Shown: in pieces, positions 8,620-15,331 of the stretch
Layout: the number at the start of each line of letters is the position of its first letter
Numbering within the stretch: the stretch's first letter is position 1
Source: Oscillospiraceae bacterium
GTDB lineage: Bacteria > Bacillota > Clostridia > Oscillospirales > Acutalibacteraceae
Direction: 5' to 3'
Assembly (NCBI GenBank): GCA_015066575.1
Contig: SVOD01000003.1
Location: 1 to 44,664 of the forward strand
Length of the DNA stretch: 44,664 bases
Notes under the pieces: model-generated
Told to the model about the DNA's origin: nothing
Databases searched by the model: none
Seen by the model: the letters and a program-made list of their open reading frames with translations, nothing else
Translations under genes and position numbers: made by a program

Positions 8620-8649
8620 AAATTATCAATGTGAAAGGTGGATAGCAGT

Positions 8650-9543
8650 ATGAAAAAGATTTCATCAATTTTTGCCGTTCTTCTTTGTTGTGCTGTTCTT
8701 TTTAGCGCCTGTAGTTTACAAGCTGCTGCCTTAGAAGAGTGTGAAGGCGATAAATATCTGCCTCCAATCGTTTTGGAAATATTAGAGGGCAATGACAACG
8801 CGCTCAATACAATTAATGATTTTGATCGCTATGAAAAGGCGTATGAAGCAGCTTACAGCACTGTAGGCGGCGACTATCAGGTTAAATTTCAAGCCGGCGG
8901 TGCAGACCACACGCACCAATATATTTGTGCAACCGCTTTAAGAGTTTTGGCGAATGACAAAGGCGATTGCTTATATAATCAAAGTTCTAATGCATCTATT
9001 TTAGTGGAAAATGCAGATTGGCCGGATAAAAACGATATCGGATTTATTTTTGATACGCATTTTTACAATCCTTACACCGAAACAAATTATCATGCCGGTT
9101 CCACCACGGCAAAGGTTAAGGCGCAACAGTACTATAATGACGCTGTCAGTTATTACAAAAACGGCAACGTTTCCGATGCACTTGCCAATTTAAGCCGCGG
9201 TTCTCATTTTGTTGCCGATGCTTGCGAAGCGCACCATGCCACCAATAAAACCGCTGTCGGGTCCAACCACAGCGCCTATGAAAAGTATATTGATACCGTG
9301 CGCACTCAAATTCAAATTCCCGGTAACTCTCTTAATGAATCGGTTTATCAGGAAGCCTTGCAATGCTCGGTTGGTCAAATAGTCAGAAATAATTCCTATG
9401 CTTCCTATGTACTGGGCGACAGAGTTACAGTCAGTGAAAGCAGTCCCGATTATTTTGATGCAGCCAGAAGCACTGTTACAAACGCTGTGATTGCAAATGT
9501 GCAGTATTATTATAAATTTGCTGTTGAAGTAGGCTTGATGTAA
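8650..9543 (+). CDS. zinc-dependent phospholipase C-like lipoprotein
   Basis: This 297-residue exported protein is related to Bacillus cereus PLC, Clostridium alpha-toxin and the S1/P1 nuclease fold. It starts at ATG 8650, eight bases after AAAGGTGG; a GTG at 8638 overlaps that site. The signal peptide ends FSAC (Cys 21), suggesting a lipoprotein. Aligned by eye to B. cereus PLC, metal ligands are present at H89, D123, H137, H186, D190, H196, H207 and E211, inside the blocks DTHFYNP, RGSHFVADACEAHH and NHSAYEKYID. Only the N-terminal Trp ligand is absent, because the mature protein begins elsewhere. It is likely a surface phospholipase or phosphodiesterase; no C2-like membrane-binding domain follows, unlike alpha-toxin. 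Confidence 0.85.
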   Translation: MKKISSIFAVLLCCAVLFSACSLQAAALEECEGDKYLPPIVLEILEGNDNALNTINDFDRYEKAYEAAYSTVGGDYQVKFQAGGADHTHQYICATALRVLANDKGDCLYNQSSNASILVENADWPDKNDIGFIFDTHFYNPYTETNYHAGSTTAKVKAQQYYNDAVSYYKNGNVSDALANLSRGSHFVADACEAHHATNKTAVGSNHSAYEKYIDTVRTQIQIPGNSLNESVYQEALQCSVGQIVRNNSYASYVLGDRVTVSESSPDYFDAARSTVTNAVIANVQYYYKFAVEVGLM

Positions 9544-11394: not shown

Positions 11395-11814
11395 GTGTCT
11401 ACAGCTAAAAAAATCCTTATTGCTGTTATTTGTGCGGTTGTCGGCATACCGATTATTTTGATTGCAGTATCTATTATCGCTATATTATTTCATAATGATG
11501 CAAAGCCTGATAACAGTAGCGACCCTCTTATTCCGCAAGGATATATGGAATTTGATGGTCAGCAGTCATATGGTGGCGGAGATTGGGATGAAATTGCATA
11601 TTATGTTTACGAACAACAACCGAAATTAGACGGTGTATTTCAACGACTTGATACAGTTAACGGCAGCGAAATTCAACAGCTTATCAGCGGTTATCCTCTG
11701 TCTACCGCAGATAATGACAATCCGCGTTTAGAACATGATTACTTGCTCCAATGCTTATCTGAAGGTGATTATTATTATGTATCGCAAAGACACTCACAGG
11801 GGCGCCCTCAATAA
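11395..11814 (+). pseudogene. small membrane-anchored protein, 3' end displaced by an inserted element
   Basis: Reading starts at GTG 11395, with AAGGTGATT upstream and 9 bases after the methyltransferase. A signal anchor (residues 5-30) is followed by an extracellular, Asp- and Tyr-rich part ending EGDYYYVSQRHS. From base 11797 the frame enters the inverted repeat of the inserted element and stops after six foreign codons (139 residues in all). The missing 19 residues, starting LFYYYDIQTKTLYKIDY, lie in frame at 15272-15331 on the far side. The original protein would have had about 153 residues. The function is unknown. The truncated protein may still be made, since only the last 12% is lost. 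Confidence 0.8.
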
Positions 11815-11824
11815 AGAGGAACAG
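11799..11824 (+). repeat. left terminal inverted repeat
   Basis: This 26-base end begins GGGGCGCCCTCAATAA. It pairs with 15242-15267 apart from two purine transitions at positions 17 and 22 of the repeat. Confidence 0.88.
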
Positions 11825-12142
11825 CTCAAAATCGCCTCTTTTCCGCTATAATTGCAGTAAAAAACTGCCAACTGGCGTCAGCCAAGAGTTACTATGTAAA
11901 GGGTAGTTTTTCACTACCTAATACATAATGACTGCGGCTCATTTGCGGTAAATGGATACGCAGTTGTGGAAAGGAGTAAATCTCACTCGAAAGCGAACAA
12001 AGCAATACAAACACATTAACAAACAAAAAATGCTTTCCGAAAAACGCATCACCATGCGACTTTCAAAAAGCAAAAGCGTTACATTTTTTTGTCGGTTCCT
12101 GTTCACGCGCTCGCTGTACACAAGCGGCGCATAAAGTAAACT
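11825..12142. other. gene-poor left end of the element
   Basis: No convincing gene is present. The stretch holds the subterminal repeat GTAAAAAACTGCCAACT (11857-11873) and a small hairpin GGTAGT/ACTACC (11902-11918). It also contains a 60-codon open frame at 11952-12134, rich in Lys, Arg, Thr and Ser, that starts without a ribosome site. That frame looks like debris of mobile DNA rather than an expressed gene. Confidence 0.5.
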
Positions 12143-12180
12143 GCCCTTGTCCCGAAGCACTCGCTTCGGGCAAGGGCTTT
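12143..12180 (+). terminator. strong GC-rich hairpin, terminator-like
   Basis: GCCCTTG and CCCGAAGC pair with GCTTCGGG and CAAGGGC (one bulged T, loop ACTC), followed by TTTC. The stem is very stable but the T run is short, so it may be either a terminator or a structural element. Confidence 0.55.
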
Positions 12181-12192
12181 CAAATATCCCGA

Positions 12193-12274
12193 AGGGCGCA
12201 CTTACTCACCACCCGAAAACCCTCTGCGAGATTTCCCTGGTGGTATTCTAACATTCGCTAGAATCGTGCGCTCT
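12193..12274. other. three-way-junction-forming sequence, possible mobilisation-region remnant
   Basis: The outer arms AGGGCGCAC (12193-12201) and GTGCGCTCT (12266-12274) pair at 8 of 9 positions. They enclose two adjoining hairpins: ACCACC/GGTGGT (12208-12213, 12239-12244) and ATTCTA/TAGAAT (12245-12250, 12259-12264). The arms abut exactly at 12244/12245. From memory, similar CTCTGCGAGGCT-type sequence lies near mobilisation genes of gut Firmicute plasmids and ICEs; that link is not verified here. Confidence 0.45.
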
Positions 12275-12359
12275 GCGAGGCTATGCGGCTTGCCTGATGA
12301 ACAGCAAACACCGCATGTTTTTTCGATGAATTACACACAACGAATAAAAGAATAATAAA

Positions 12360-12436
12360 ATGATGTTGGCGCAACGCGCCTTATGATGTATCGGCTAAAG
12401 TCGAAATGATGTAGTTCGTTTCTCTCACAATGATGC
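12360..12436 (+). repeat. short regularly spaced ATGATGT array with hairpin spacers
   Basis: ATGATGT occurs at 12360, 12383 and 12406, and ATGATGC at 12430, giving periods of 23, 23 and 24 bases. The first two 16-base spacers are self-complementary (GGCG/CGCC and TCGGC/GTCGA with one wobble). The third is degenerate. It is too short and too structured to be a CRISPR. Confidence 0.6.
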
Positions 12437-12535
12437 AATAAGTCTTGAATCTTTAAACTCACCATCAAAACTGGTCGAATACTTCAAGTATCATATGTAA
12501 TCAGTCCTTCTTTCAAGAGGTTTTTTGTTTTTTAT

Positions 12536-12568
12536 GCTCTCGGCTTATAGCCGAGGGCTTCATTTTTT
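12536..12568 (+). terminator. intrinsic terminator inside the element
   Basis: The stem GCTCTCGGCT/AGCCGAGGGC (12536-12545, 12549-12558, one T-G pair) with loop TAT is followed by TTCATTTTTT. It would stop read-through before the CHAP promoter. Confidence 0.75.
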
Positions 12569-12622
12569 GCTAATATTGTTTTAAGAATTAAATATATTTA
12601 CTATTGGCGGTGTTTGTTTTTA

Positions 12623-12652
12623 TTGACAAATACATTCGGTCAATGATAAAAT
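12623..12652 (+). promoter_or_regulatory. sigma-A promoter of the CHAP hydrolase gene
   Basis: TTGACA (12623-12628), 18 bases, TAAAAT (12647-12652). The expected +1 (about 12659) coincides with the first base of the large inverted repeat, so the hairpin forms the very 5' end of the mRNA. Confidence 0.65.
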
Positions 12653-12658
12653 AAAAGA

Positions 12659-12781
12659 GCCAAATAAAAGTCAATTAAATATGCACATACTATGGGAGTA
12701 CTGGCATTTTTATTTTTCGGTAAAAATGCATACTCTTTTCAATGCGTGTACTCTTGTATGTGTAATTGACTTTTGTTTGGC
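12659..12781 (+). promoter_or_regulatory. structured 5' leader of the CHAP gene (nested 19-bp inverted repeat)
   Basis: GCCAAATAAAAGTCAATTA (12659-12677) pairs with 12763-12781, with one T-G wobble in 19. After a 6-base bulge, CACATAC (12684-12690) pairs with GTATGTG (12756-12762). Inside is a second hairpin: GAGTA/TACTC (12696-12700, 12731-12735) and GCATTTTTA/TAAAAATGC (12704-12712, 12721-12729). It matches no riboswitch class that I know. It may instead be a small MITE whose arms became the leader. GA lies directly outside both arms. Confidence 0.7.
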
Positions 12782-12806
12782 GACAGTTGGAGTTGTGCAT
12801 TTTTCG

Positions 12807-12835
12807 GTGCGTGGCTTCCGGCTGCGCACTTTTTT
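12807..12835 (+). terminator. attenuator-like terminator immediately before the CHAP ribosome site
   Basis: GTGCGTGGC (12807-12815) pairs with GCTGCGCAC (12821-12829) through nine pairs, two of them G-T, with loop TTCCG and then six T. It ends 6 bases before the GGGAGG site of the CHAP gene, so transcription must pass it for the gene to be expressed. Confidence 0.7.
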
Positions 12836-12855
12836 GTTTTCGGGAGGAAAAAGAA

Positions 12856-14991
12856 ATGAAAAGAGTTGTTAGTTTATTACTTGTCTTTGCTATTGTGTTT
12901 TCTCTTGCGGCAGGGATGGGAATTAGTTCAAATGCCACTACAGCGCATACACAATCGGAGGCTGTGAGTTGGGCGAATAGTCAAGTTGGAAAATCGCTTG
13001 ATTATGATGGTGTTTATGGAGCGCAGTGTGTTGATTTAATAAAATATTATTATAAATATTTAGGAGTCAGCCCTGTTACTGGAAATGCTTCTGATTATTC
13101 TTCAAATTCGTTGCCAAGTGGATGGAGCAGAATAAAGTATTTTAGCGGCTTTGTTGCACAACCTGGTGATGTGGCTGTTTGGTCGTATTTATCCTCGAGC
13201 GCAGGACATGTTGGAATTGTGACATCCGCTAATTCTTCCGGCATGAATTTGGTCGACCAAAACGGCGCAACTGCTCCTGCTCATGTTGTGAAAACCTGTT
13301 GGAAAAACTATTCGAGCGGAACTTTTTATGGCGTAATACGACCCAATTTTCCAAGCAATGGAACTTCAAACAAAACGCCGGCAAATTTGGGTGATGATTT
13401 TTATGCTTATATTATAAGATTTGACACTTGGAAACATTTGGCAAACGAAAAGGATAATCTACAAATCTCTTCAACAGGTAATGAATGTATCCCAAGACAA
13501 ATTTGGCATTTTACTCGTCAGTCTAATGGCAGTTATCGCATTGAAAGCGCTTATGATAACAGAAGTTTAGATGCTGACTGTGCAGGAACAACTAACGGCA
13601 CCAATGTTAAAATGTATAACAGTTACGATACTGCAGCGCAAAAGTGGTTTTTATATGCAAATGGCTCCGGATATAATATTGCCGCCTCATATTGCGATAA
13701 TGTCTTTGATTGCACAGCCGGTTCCAGTAATGCCGGTACGAATGTTCAATTACATCAATCAAACAATACCGCAGCACAAATCTTTTCAATTTATAAATAC
13801 GACAGAAACAATGGAGTTTATGTTAAGCCAGGCGTTCCTAATAAAGTTAGTGTTACTACGAGTGTTTCGTCAAAGACTGTTACTATTAAGTGGAACAGTG
13901 CACCTTTGAAGAGCGATCATTTAGATGCCAGAGAATATGATGTGCGAATCTACAAAAATAGTACTGGCAATAGCCCAATTTTTACCAAGTTTGGAATTTC
14001 AAATACAAGTTATTCTTATACATTAAGCGATTCAGGAACATATTATGTTACGGTTGCCTCGGTTAATGCGAAGTATTACAGTTATTTCTCAATGTCAGAC
14101 GCTGTAAAGTTTACTGTTTCAACAGTTTGTTCTCATTCTTACACAAGCAAAACCACTAAATCAGCCACATGCACGGCAACCGGAGTCAAAACCTTCACCT
14201 GTTCCAAATGCGGCAATCAATATACACAAACCATTGCTGCTCTCGGACACGATTATAAAGACTCCGTCACTAAGGCAGCCACCTGCACCGAAAAAGGCAT
14301 TAAGACTTTCAAGTGTTCTCGCTGCACAAGCAGTTATACGCAAGACATTGCTTCTTTAGGGCATAATCTAAAAACAAAGGTTTATGATAAAGCTAAAGTT
14401 TGGCAAACCGGCTCCTGCTCGGGTGATACGGAAGATTATTGTACGAGATGTAATTATCAATCAATTCATTACACAACTATCGGATATGTCGATGAGATTG
14501 TGCTTGCAAAAACAACTTATACTTATTCCGGCAATACAATCACTCCTTCTATAAAGGTTGTTGATAGGGATGGGAAAACGCTCAAAAACGGAACCGACTA
14601 TACCGTCAAATACGCAAGCGGCAGGAAAAATGTCGGCAAATATGCTGTGAAAGTCAGTTTCCAAGGGAAATATACCGGCTCTCGTATGTTGTATTTCAAG
14701 ATTGTTCCGAAAGGAACCACGCTTTCAAAACTGACTGCCGGTAGAAAATCATTTACGGCAAAGTGGAAAAAACTTGGAGGAATTACGGGTTATCAAATCC
14801 AATACAGCACCAACACTAAATTCACCAGTGCAAAACTTGTTACAATTCGAAGTGCAAACACGCTTTCAAAAACCATAAAAAGTCTTTCGGCAAAGAAAAA
14901 CTATTATGTGCGCGTGCGCACTTACAAAACAGTTTCCGGTACACACTATATGTCCGCTTGGAGTAAAACCTACAAGGTAAAAACAAAATAA
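12856..14991 (+). CDS. secreted multidomain CHAP-domain cell-wall hydrolase
   Basis: This 711-residue exported protein starts at ATG 12856, with GGGAGGAAAAAG upstream. A signal peptide (1-30, ending SNATTA) is followed by a CHAP amidase/endopeptidase domain (about 33-165). Its catalytic Cys is C58 (GAQCVDLIKYY) and its His is H118 (AGHVGIVTS). A ricin-type beta-trefoil follows (about 180-315, with QKW and QIF repeats), then a fibronectin-III-like domain (about 327-422). Two 38-residue Cys/His repeats (C439, C449, C452, H465 and C477, C487, C490, H503) come next, then a bacterial Ig-like domain (about 545-617) and a C-terminal FN3-like domain (about 620-711). It probably cleaves peptidoglycan peptides and binds glycans at the surface. 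It is the only cargo gene of the surrounding element. Confidence 0.85.
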   Translation: MKRVVSLLLVFAIVFSLAAGMGISSNATTAHTQSEAVSWANSQVGKSLDYDGVYGAQCVDLIKYYYKYLGVSPVTGNASDYSSNSLPSGWSRIKYFSGFVAQPGDVAVWSYLSSSAGHVGIVTSANSSGMNLVDQNGATAPAHVVKTCWKNYSSGTFYGVIRPNFPSNGTSNKTPANLGDDFYAYIIRFDTWKHLANEKDNLQISSTGNECIPRQIWHFTRQSNGSYRIESAYDNRSLDADCAGTTNGTNVKMYNSYDTAAQKWFLYANGSGYNIAASYCDNVFDCTAGSSNAGTNVQLHQSNNTAAQIFSIYKYDRNNGVYVKPGVPNKVSVTTSVSSKTVTIKWNSAPLKSDHLDAREYDVRIYKNSTGNSPIFTKFGISNTSYSYTLSDSGTYYVTVASVNAKYYSYFSMSDAVKFTVSTVCSHSYTSKTTKSATCTATGVKTFTCSKCGNQYTQTIAALGHDYKDSVTKAATCTEKGIKTFKCSRCTSSYTQDIASLGHNLKTKVYDKAKVWQTGSCSGDTEDYCTRCNYQSIHYTTIGYVDEIVLAKTTYTYSGNTITPSIKVVDRDGKTLKNGTDYTVKYASGRKNVGKYAVKVSFQGKYTGSRMLYFKIVPKGTTLSKLTAGRKSFTAKWKKLGGITGYQIQYSTNTKFTSAKLVTIRSANTLSKTIKSLSAKKNYYVRVRTYKTVSGTHYMSAWSKTYKVKTK

Positions 14992-15000
14992 CTCAAGCAA

Positions 15001-15045
15001 AAAACTGTGAGTCACAGATAACCTGTAACTCACAGTTTTACTTTT
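15001..15045 (+). terminator. intrinsic terminator of the CHAP gene
   Basis: The 12-bp stem AAAACTGTGAGT/ACTCACAGTTTT (15001-15012, 15028-15039) with inner ACAG/CTGT pairs is followed by ACTTTT. Confidence 0.85.
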
Positions 15046-15241
15046 AAAAAAATACCCTTGACAAATCGCTTCTCAAGTTGGCAGTTTTTACTTTATTCTA
15101 ACAAAAAATAGGCTGATTTTGAGTGCTTTGCAGTTTTTGTTAAGTTATTTTATTCGGATAAGTGAGAAAAAATGCTTTGCATACTTGCCGTATTCAAGGG
15201 ATTTTTTATCGCTTAGGCGGATGAAAGAACAACGCAAAAAC
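15046..15241. other. non-coding right end of the element
   Basis: This AT-rich stretch carries the subterminal repeat AGTTGGCAGTTTTTAC (15076-15091) 176 bases from the right end. An open frame from 15119 runs through the right inverted repeat into the displaced 3' end of the host gene. It has no start signal and is an artefact of the insertion. Confidence 0.55.
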
Positions 15242-15267
15242 CTGTCCCTCCTTATTGAGGGCGCCCC
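15242..15267 (-). repeat. right terminal inverted repeat
   Basis: Reverse complement of the left end, reading GGGGCGCCCTCAATAA from the outside inward. Two of 26 bases differ. Confidence 0.88.
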
Positions 15268-15271
15268 CGCA

Positions 15272-15331
15272 TTGTTTTATTATTATGATATACAGACTAA
15301 GACGCTTTATAAGATAGATTATCGTTTTTAA
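15272..15331 (+). pseudogene. displaced 3' end of the interrupted membrane-protein gene
   Basis: This encodes LFYYYDIQTKTLYKIDYRF and TAA. Joined at codon boundaries to the fragment ending at 11796, it completes an uninterrupted 153-residue frame. It is followed at once by a terminator, as expected for the true 3' end of a gene. Confidence 0.78.

What the first reader, a model, noticed from the sequence alone, without database searches (positions are those of the whole stretch)
11797..15269. TIR-bounded 3.47 kb cargo element without transposase, precisely splitting a host gene
The sequence shows 26-bp inverted ends (24/26 identical), a second inverted motif (GTAAAAACTGCCAACT) inside each end, and CA on both outer edges. 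Deleting the segment plus one CA fuses ...RHS to LFYYYD... in frame, giving a complete 153-codon gene with its own terminator. Inside there is one secreted CHAP hydrolase with promoter, leader and terminator but no transposase. I do not recognise this TIR family. It may be a non-autonomous transposon that spreads cell-wall hydrolases or bacteriocin-like lysins.
Basis: partly seen in the sequence, partly recalled or inferred. Interest (0 to 1): 0.8.

Follow-up and report, generated by a model that had tools for sequence, protein, structure and literature searches.

The report
Lysin cassette nested in hairpin repeat
A gene for a predicted secreted cell-wall enzyme sits in a 3.2-kb cassette, likely moved by a site-specific recombinase, that lies in the tip of a hairpin-shaped repeat which itself interrupts a bacterial gene; because the repeat is scattered through related genomes, it would act as a dispersed docking site for mobile cargo.

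Summary
The inverted ends, the second inverted motif and the split gene are real, but this is two nested elements, not one TIR transposon. Outer: a 278-bp hairpin repeat whose intact copies occur elsewhere in this genome; 7 of 7 genomes of the genus carry it. All seven left junctions found in the genus (4 genomes, probably six cassettes) lie at the same loop position. Three cassettes encode a TnpX-like large serine recombinase; three, including this one, are small and carry a secreted-protein gene instead. The small ones share a left end that is a mosaic of pieces of the autonomous element. Best reading: a non-autonomous (CIME-like) derivative of a Tn4451-type element whose attachment site is the loop of a dispersed hairpin repeat. 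Recombination in trans is inferred, no circle was seen, and no close recombinase was found in this incomplete draft. An uninterrupted orthologue of the host gene exists. The CHAP enzyme itself is of a common kind. New variant of a known kind.

The parts
11395..11798 (+). 5' part of the interrupted host gene (predicted small membrane-anchored protein, no Pfam match)
   Evidence: ORF; no Pfam family; uninterrupted relative in G002
15268..15331 (+). 3' part of the interrupted host gene
   Evidence: read by eye against the G002 frame; stop at 15329-15331
11799..11882 (+). left part of the hairpin repeat (left TIR and left strand of hairpin 1)
   Evidence: same sequence in intact units
15078..15267 (+). 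right part of the hairpin repeat (right strand of hairpin 1, hairpin 2, right TIR)
   Evidence: intact units
11799..11824 (+). left terminal inverted repeat, closing stem of the repeat
   Evidence: pairs covary, helix 1
15242..15267 (-). right terminal inverted repeat
   Evidence: helix 1
   Evidence: helix 4
15076..15089 (+). right strand of the stem of hairpin 1
   Evidence: helix 4
11883..11886 (+). CAAG of attL-like junction, in the apical loop
   Evidence: same junction in 7 left ends
15074..15077 (+). CAAG of attR-like junction
   Evidence: same junction in 4 right ends; a fifth (G001:C92) is truncated
11887..15073 (+). cassette (3,191 bp counted with one CAAG), non-autonomous
11799..12283 (+). 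stretch similar to the autonomous element in three blocks (11799-11991 repeat plus cassette left end; 11998-12135 inverted internal stretch; 12142-12283 stretch downstream of the recombinase gene)
   Evidence: blastn
12856..14991 (+). 711-aa predicted secreted protein: leader, CHAP, ricin-B-like lectin, C-terminal fn3
   Evidence: 2373 relatives at E<=0.001 among 7994 scored candidates
15001..15039 (+). terminator-like hairpin after the CHAP gene
   Evidence: inverted repeat I6

Best explanation
The segment is a 278-bp hairpin repeat lying in a small host gene, with a 3,191-bp cassette seated in the apical loop of the repeat's first hairpin, and the cassette is likely a non-autonomous derivative of a TnpX-like large-serine-recombinase element that was moved in trans by such a recombinase. 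Shown: the cassette ends, the CAAG shared by both junctions and the loop position recur in other genomes of the genus, where three cassettes with the same ends carry the recombinase. Inferred: the recombinase joins an attP (ATCGCTTCT-CAAG-AGTTACTATG) to the attB in the repeat's loop (GGCGTCAGC-CAAG-TTGGCAG); small cassettes that kept both ends but lost the recombinase still moved when a sister element supplied it, and exchanged the secreted-protein gene in their middle. Inferred: the repeat moves separately, often into terminator-like hairpins, so that each new copy adds an attachment site. In this window the two insertions together interrupt the host gene.
For: Length: window unit 3,469 bp minus 3,191 bp cassette = 278 bp, the length of intact units. 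7 of 7 cassette left ends found in the genus (4 of 7 genomes) have the same loop junction; the query held both loop and cassette, so left ends elsewhere would also have been found. Four of five right ends match. Recombinase 656 aa in G005:C49, 98% identical in G001:C93, 100% over the 423 aa held in G003:C98, with Resolvase, Recombinase, Zn_ribbon_recom and DUF4368 domains and TnpV at the left end; best solved match by sequence TnpX 2mhc, E 2.5e-43 over residues 8-122. Small cassettes in the window, G003:C124 and G001:C66/C92 share the mosaic left end (94% over 554 columns and 84% over 449 columns to the window), while the outer flanks of the three loci show no cross match. Tn4451-type elements use 2-bp cores (PMC5704250, PMC3158075, passages).
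Against: No circle or attP joint was seen (viral contigs: 0 exact matches; bacterial genomes were not searched for attP). In the window's own 82.7%-complete draft the best recombinase is 39% identical, so mobility there may be over. The G001:C93 recombinase is split over two frames. The third small cassette is held on two contig ends, was not joined, and its right repeat half is nearly gone. Two other genera have partial matches to the cassette left end without the loop part (83% over 58 nt and 79% over 57 nt), which were not studied. The hairpin's role in recognition is untested.
Confidence: 0.87

Rival explanations
1. One TIR transposon: a transposase acting on the 26-bp ends moved the whole 3.47-kb unit, cargo included.
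For: TIRs at both outer ends; an intact host orthologue. One element, G001:C83, does carry 15.6 kb directly between the same TIRs. The whole composite could have moved after the cassette entered; my data do not exclude that.
Against: Intact 278-bp units without cargo and cassettes always opened at the same internal loop (7 of 7) show the cargo entered separately; recombinase-bearing elements share the cassette ends, not just the TIRs.
Confidence: 0.06
2. In-place remnants: each small cassette is a full element that decayed where it had integrated and never moved again after losing the recombinase.
For: CIMEs are described as decayed elements that keep attL and attR (PMC5704250, passages); no close recombinase found in G000.
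Against: Three small cassettes at loci with unlike flanks share one mosaic left end, which is easier to explain by one rearrangement followed by movement; horizontal transfer and repeated parallel deletion are not excluded.
Confidence: 0.05
3. An RNA-level mobile element (intron-like or another structured RNA) with its ORF in a peripheral loop, comparable in layout to group II introns with an ORF in domain IV (recalled).
For: The unit is strongly structured (z -14 and -16), its stems covary, and the cargo sits in a loop.
Against: No Rfam match at gathering score in the window but a tRNA; in an intact unit four weak matches, none near its gathering score; the cargo has its own junctions and, in full versions, a DNA recombinase.
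Confidence: 0.02

Closest known systems
Tn4451/Tn4453 and Tn6104 (TnpX-type large-serine-recombinase mobilizable transposons)
   Same: TnpX-like recombinase and TnpV; very short identical core at both junctions; a relaxase in one full element (PMC3158075 and PMC5704250, passages)
   Different: Tn4451 is described as of low target specificity, here one loop of one repeat family is used in all 7 left junctions found; the window cassette has no recombinase
CIME (cis-mobilizable element: att sites kept, recombination and transfer genes lost)
   Same: Keeps attL- and attR-like ends and lacks recombinase and transfer genes (PMC5704250, passages)
   Different: The same mosaic small form recurs at three loci with exchanged secreted-protein cargo; the site is a multi-copy repeat, not a gene end
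IME_Rho_tet (serine-recombinase elements of gut Bacillota)
   Same: Serine recombinase near the 3' boundary and TIRs at the ends (81-90 bp after the stop; PMC12904643, sections 13 and 15), like G001:C83, G002:C41 and G002:C40 here (69-77 nt by eye)
   Different: No cargo-less hairpin repeat with the same TIRs and no loop-seated cassette appears in the parts I saw; resistance cargo there, none found here
Insertion sequences that target REP sequences
   Same: A mobile element that uses a dispersed extragenic palindrome as its target (PMC1525189, abstract)
   Different: There IS transposases and short REPs; here a serine-recombinase element and a 278-bp two-hairpin unit
Bacterial MITEs nesting in one another (BOX, RUP, SPRITE of pneumococcus)
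   Same: Short structured repeats inserted into one another and linked to terminators (PMC10969869, passages)
   Different: Here the interior is more conserved than the termini, and a recombinase cassette uses a fixed loop

Membership tests
Tn4451-type serine-recombinase element (the cassette family) | TnpX-like large serine recombinase between the ends | tested here: met
   met in 3 full cassettes; not met in the window cassette itself, which is therefore only a derivative
Tn4451-type serine-recombinase element (the cassette family) | TnpV | tested here: met
   Pfam TnpV in G005:C49 and G001:C93; G003:C98 has a similar 125-aa ORF that was not scanned
Tn4451-type serine-recombinase element (the cassette family) | very short identical core at both junctions, restored as one copy in the empty site | tested here: met
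   CAAG in attL, attR and empty loops of the same kind
Tn4451-type serine-recombinase element (the cassette family) | excision as a circle | not testable with these tools
   only exact attP in viral contigs was searched: 0
Tn4451-type serine-recombinase element (the cassette family) | mobilisation gene | tested here: inconclusive
   MobQ relaxase above NCBI cut-off in G001:C93; none among the listed ORFs of G005:C49
CIME | keeps attL and attR, lacks recombinase and transfer genes | tested here: met
CIME | mobilised by a related element | not testable with these tools
   needs an assay
MITE (the 278-bp repeat) | short, non-coding, TIR-bounded, multi-copy | tested here: met
   278 bp, 3 to 45 matches per genome in 7 of 7 genomes, partial matches included
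MITE (the 278-bp repeat) | termini shared with an autonomous element | tested here: inconclusive
   three serine-recombinase loci (G001:C83, G002:C41, G002:C40) end in the same terminal repeat shortly after the recombinase stop, but there are no excision data and no search for other transposases was made
MITE (the 278-bp repeat) | target duplication of fixed length | tested here: inconclusive
   13 of 21 units have the same AA or TT on both sides (7% by chance), the window unit does not; no empty site of sufficient identity

The most novel reading that the evidence does not exclude
A two-layer docking system: a structurally selected hairpin repeat spreads serine-recombinase attachment sites into transcription terminators across the genome, and recombinase-less cassettes with interchangeable secreted-protein cargo, as well as full elements carrying a phage-defence system, are collected in those loops, a scattered, non-tandem counterpart of an integron; the repeat itself is carried by other recombinases of the same family through shared TIRs.
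Probability: 0.3. Interest if true: 0.78.

Novelty: new variant of a known kind. Interest (0 to 1): 0.6.

Why it matters
If right, it is a concrete case in which a dispersed hairpin repeat is the attachment site of a serine-recombinase element, so that repeat copy number would set the number of landing sites. It also shows recombinase-less cassettes in which a secreted-protein module is exchanged between constant ends, with a full element carrying Gabija-type defence genes between the same ends. The att sites and the recombinase are defined well enough for a two-plasmid assay.

Tried and rejected
Single TIR transposon with an unknown transposase: rejected for the entry of the cargo, because ends and position belong to a separate cassette. 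CA target duplication and 153-codon join: not supported. Known RNA family or intron: no Rfam match at threshold other than a tRNA. Phage or plasmid vehicle: no exact match of attP, attL or repeat patterns in viral contigs, no near match of the G005:C49 stretch in plasmids; the recombinase has matches in 417 phage records, best 75% identity over 54% of the query in a human-gut contig, not followed. Wider spread: the cassette left end matched in 3 of 120 and the right end in 7 of 120 genomes drawn from the family, the repeat in 4 of 150, the window's own genome included each time; matches outside the genus were short and were not studied. The right-end search in the genus also hit G005:C40 and other places that match only the terminator hairpin; G005:C40 was fetched but not studied. 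Eight paper searches listed no paper whose title or abstract describes a serine-recombinase element using a MITE or hairpin repeat as its site; preprints and most subscription journals are outside that library. Integron attC membership was not tested and no integron integrase was searched.

Rows dropped: alignment A1 holds 17 of 18 trimmed units (G002:C72, with the same flanks as G001:C107, was left out), and those 18 were picked as the most complete of the matches listed (a capped list). In one search, 15 of 18 units had both 32-nt flanks. The loop table covers 25 units, three of them copies of one insertion. My note says 8 of 15 for the flank pairing; the right count is 9 of 15.
Full report
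What is in the sequence. The two 26-nt arms (11799-11824, 15242-15267) and the inner 14-nt inverted motif are present. Between them lies one large gene, 12856-14991, with a CHAP domain, a ricin-B-like lectin domain and a C-terminal fn3 domain; no transposase-like gene was seen among the listed ORFs. The surrounding gene is interrupted: G002 has an uninterrupted 156-aa frame between the same neighbours, and nucleotide similarity to the window stops at 11784 and resumes at 15269. A relative of the gene was found in 2 of 7 genomes, the window's own included. The exact base of insertion cannot be fixed, and a CA duplication is not supported.

The ends belong to a separate repeat. Searching the window's own genome with the left and right ends showed them side by side as 278-279-bp units at C28, C96 and C72. 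All 7 genomes searched in the genus carry the repeat, with 3 to 45 matches each, partial matches included. In 150 genomes drawn from the family, 4 match: two of this genus and two others with short weak matches. One unit with about 20 nt of flank on each side folds into a closing stem (the TIRs) and two long hairpins; 0 of 100 shuffles fold as well on either strand. In 17 units (16 distinct) with several different terminal sequences, 38 of 116 pairs have changes on both sides and 89.7% of cells pair, against 11-15 pairs and 42-51% when partners are slid by 1-3 columns. Shuffles reached neither value in 500 tries, but the number of further pair types was no higher than in shuffles (75 against a mean of 75.4; 308 of 500 reached it). 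The structure was taken from one of the units, which favours it over the slid versions, and the units are related, so shuffle counts are not probabilities. Conserved interior with exchanged but complementary termini is the reverse of what I would expect of a MITE (recalled).

Where the repeats sit. In 9 of 15 units with both 32-nt flanks the flanks can pair at -18 kcal/mol or better; with one row per site it is 7 of 13, mean -15.5, against 5 of 156 cross-pairings, mean -9.6. Several of these flanks read as terminator-like hairpins split at the loop (by eye). 13 of 21 units have the same AA or TT on both outer sides, 7% expected from base composition. The window unit is an exception on both counts: flanks pair at only -5.9, it lies in a gene, and the dinucleotides are CA and CG.

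The cassette. In the window the repeat is opened in the apical loop of hairpin 1 by 3,191 bp. Left junction GGCGTCAGC-CAAG-AGTTACTATG, right junction ATCGCTTCT-CAAG-TTGGCAG, empty loops of the same kind GGCGTCAGC-CAAG-TTGGCAG. The left junction occurs in 7 of 7 left ends found in the genus, in 4 of 7 genomes. G003:C14 and G003:C98 may be one copy split between contigs, so six cassettes is the safer count. Four of five right ends match; the fifth, G001:C92, has lost nearly the whole right half of the repeat. Six of the seven occupied loops share the left side CAACTGGCGTCAGC. Of 25 empty loops examined 12 have CAAG, 10 CTTA, 2 CAAA and 1 CTGA.

Autonomous relatives. G005:C49 (7.4 kb) has a 656-aa recombinase, TnpV, a Cys_rich_VLP protein, an AlbA/HATPase protein and a 113-aa AAA-type ORF. 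G001:C93 (21.2 kb) has a recombinase 98% identical over residues 1-496 and 96% over 488-656 in two frames, a MobQ relaxase, a subtilase and GajA/GajB genes of the Gabija defence type. G003:C98 shows a 125-aa ORF like the G001 TnpV and the recombinase up to its contig end. The best solved match by sequence is TnpX. In the window's genome the best recombinase is 39% identical.

Small cassettes. The window, G003:C124 and G001:C66/C92 share a left end similar to the autonomous element in three blocks: its left end, an inverted internal stretch and a stretch downstream of the recombinase gene. The outer flanks of the three loci show no cross match (the two G001 flanks match each other over 184 nt, so a local duplication there is possible). 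Cargo: CHAP proteins in two, sharing leader and CHAP part (45% over 147 aa) and the C-terminal fn3 part but differing in the middle. In the third a predicted secreted protein whose N-part has no Pfam match above cut-off, with the same kind of C-terminus (two contig ends, not joined). CHAP relatives are numerous in public data (2373 at E<=0.001 among 7994 scored candidates), so the enzyme class is ordinary.

Second layer. Of 20 recombinase-search loci whose 3' ends were read, three (G001:C83, G002:C41, G002:C40; 42% identical to the first recombinase) end in the repeat's own terminal sequence within about 80 nt of the recombinase stop; most others do not. The first two carry what reads as the same element type. 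G001:C83 is bounded by the terminal sequence on both sides, 15,611 bp apart, with TnpV at the other end. This makes it plausible, not shown, that the repeat is also carried by a serine recombinase: a 2-bp core is described for Tn4451 and Tn6104 (PMC5704250 and PMC3158075, passages) and TIRs at serine-recombinase boundaries for IME_Rho_tet (PMC12904643, section 15).

Verdict. A new variant of a known kind: a CIME-like, recombinase-less cassette of a TnpX-type element whose attachment site is the loop of a dispersed hairpin repeat. Placement, ends and relatives are shown; recombination in trans, present mobility and any lytic function are inferred.

Noticed in passing
window 8638-9543: A 301-aa predicted secreted protein with no Pfam match at E 0.001; its spaced histidines and aspartates recall zinc-dependent phospholipase-like folds (recalled, untested).
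   Followed up: no
L077 305-4033 (G001:C93): GajA and GajB genes of the Gabija defence type inside a full cassette with the same ends; G005:C49 holds a 113-aa AAA-type ORF at the matching place.
   Followed up: partly
L097 237-15847 (G001:C83): A 15.6-kb element with TnpV, another large serine recombinase and large secreted-protein genes, bounded by the same terminal sequence as the repeat with AA on both sides.
   Followed up: partly
L107, L108, L111: 27-28-bp hairpins made of the two TIR halves only, which look like deletion forms of the repeat.
   Followed up: partly
L106 (G002:C103): A repeat whose second hairpin is interrupted by about 250-300 bp of other sequence that itself looks hairpin-rich.
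   Followed up: no
L166 117-300 and the right flank in L165: The outer flanks of the G001 small cassette match each other at 93% over 184 nt in direct orientation.
   Followed up: no
L174, L175, L176, L171, L090, L186: Subfamilies of the repeat with quite different but complementary terminal sequences around a conserved interior.
   Followed up: partly
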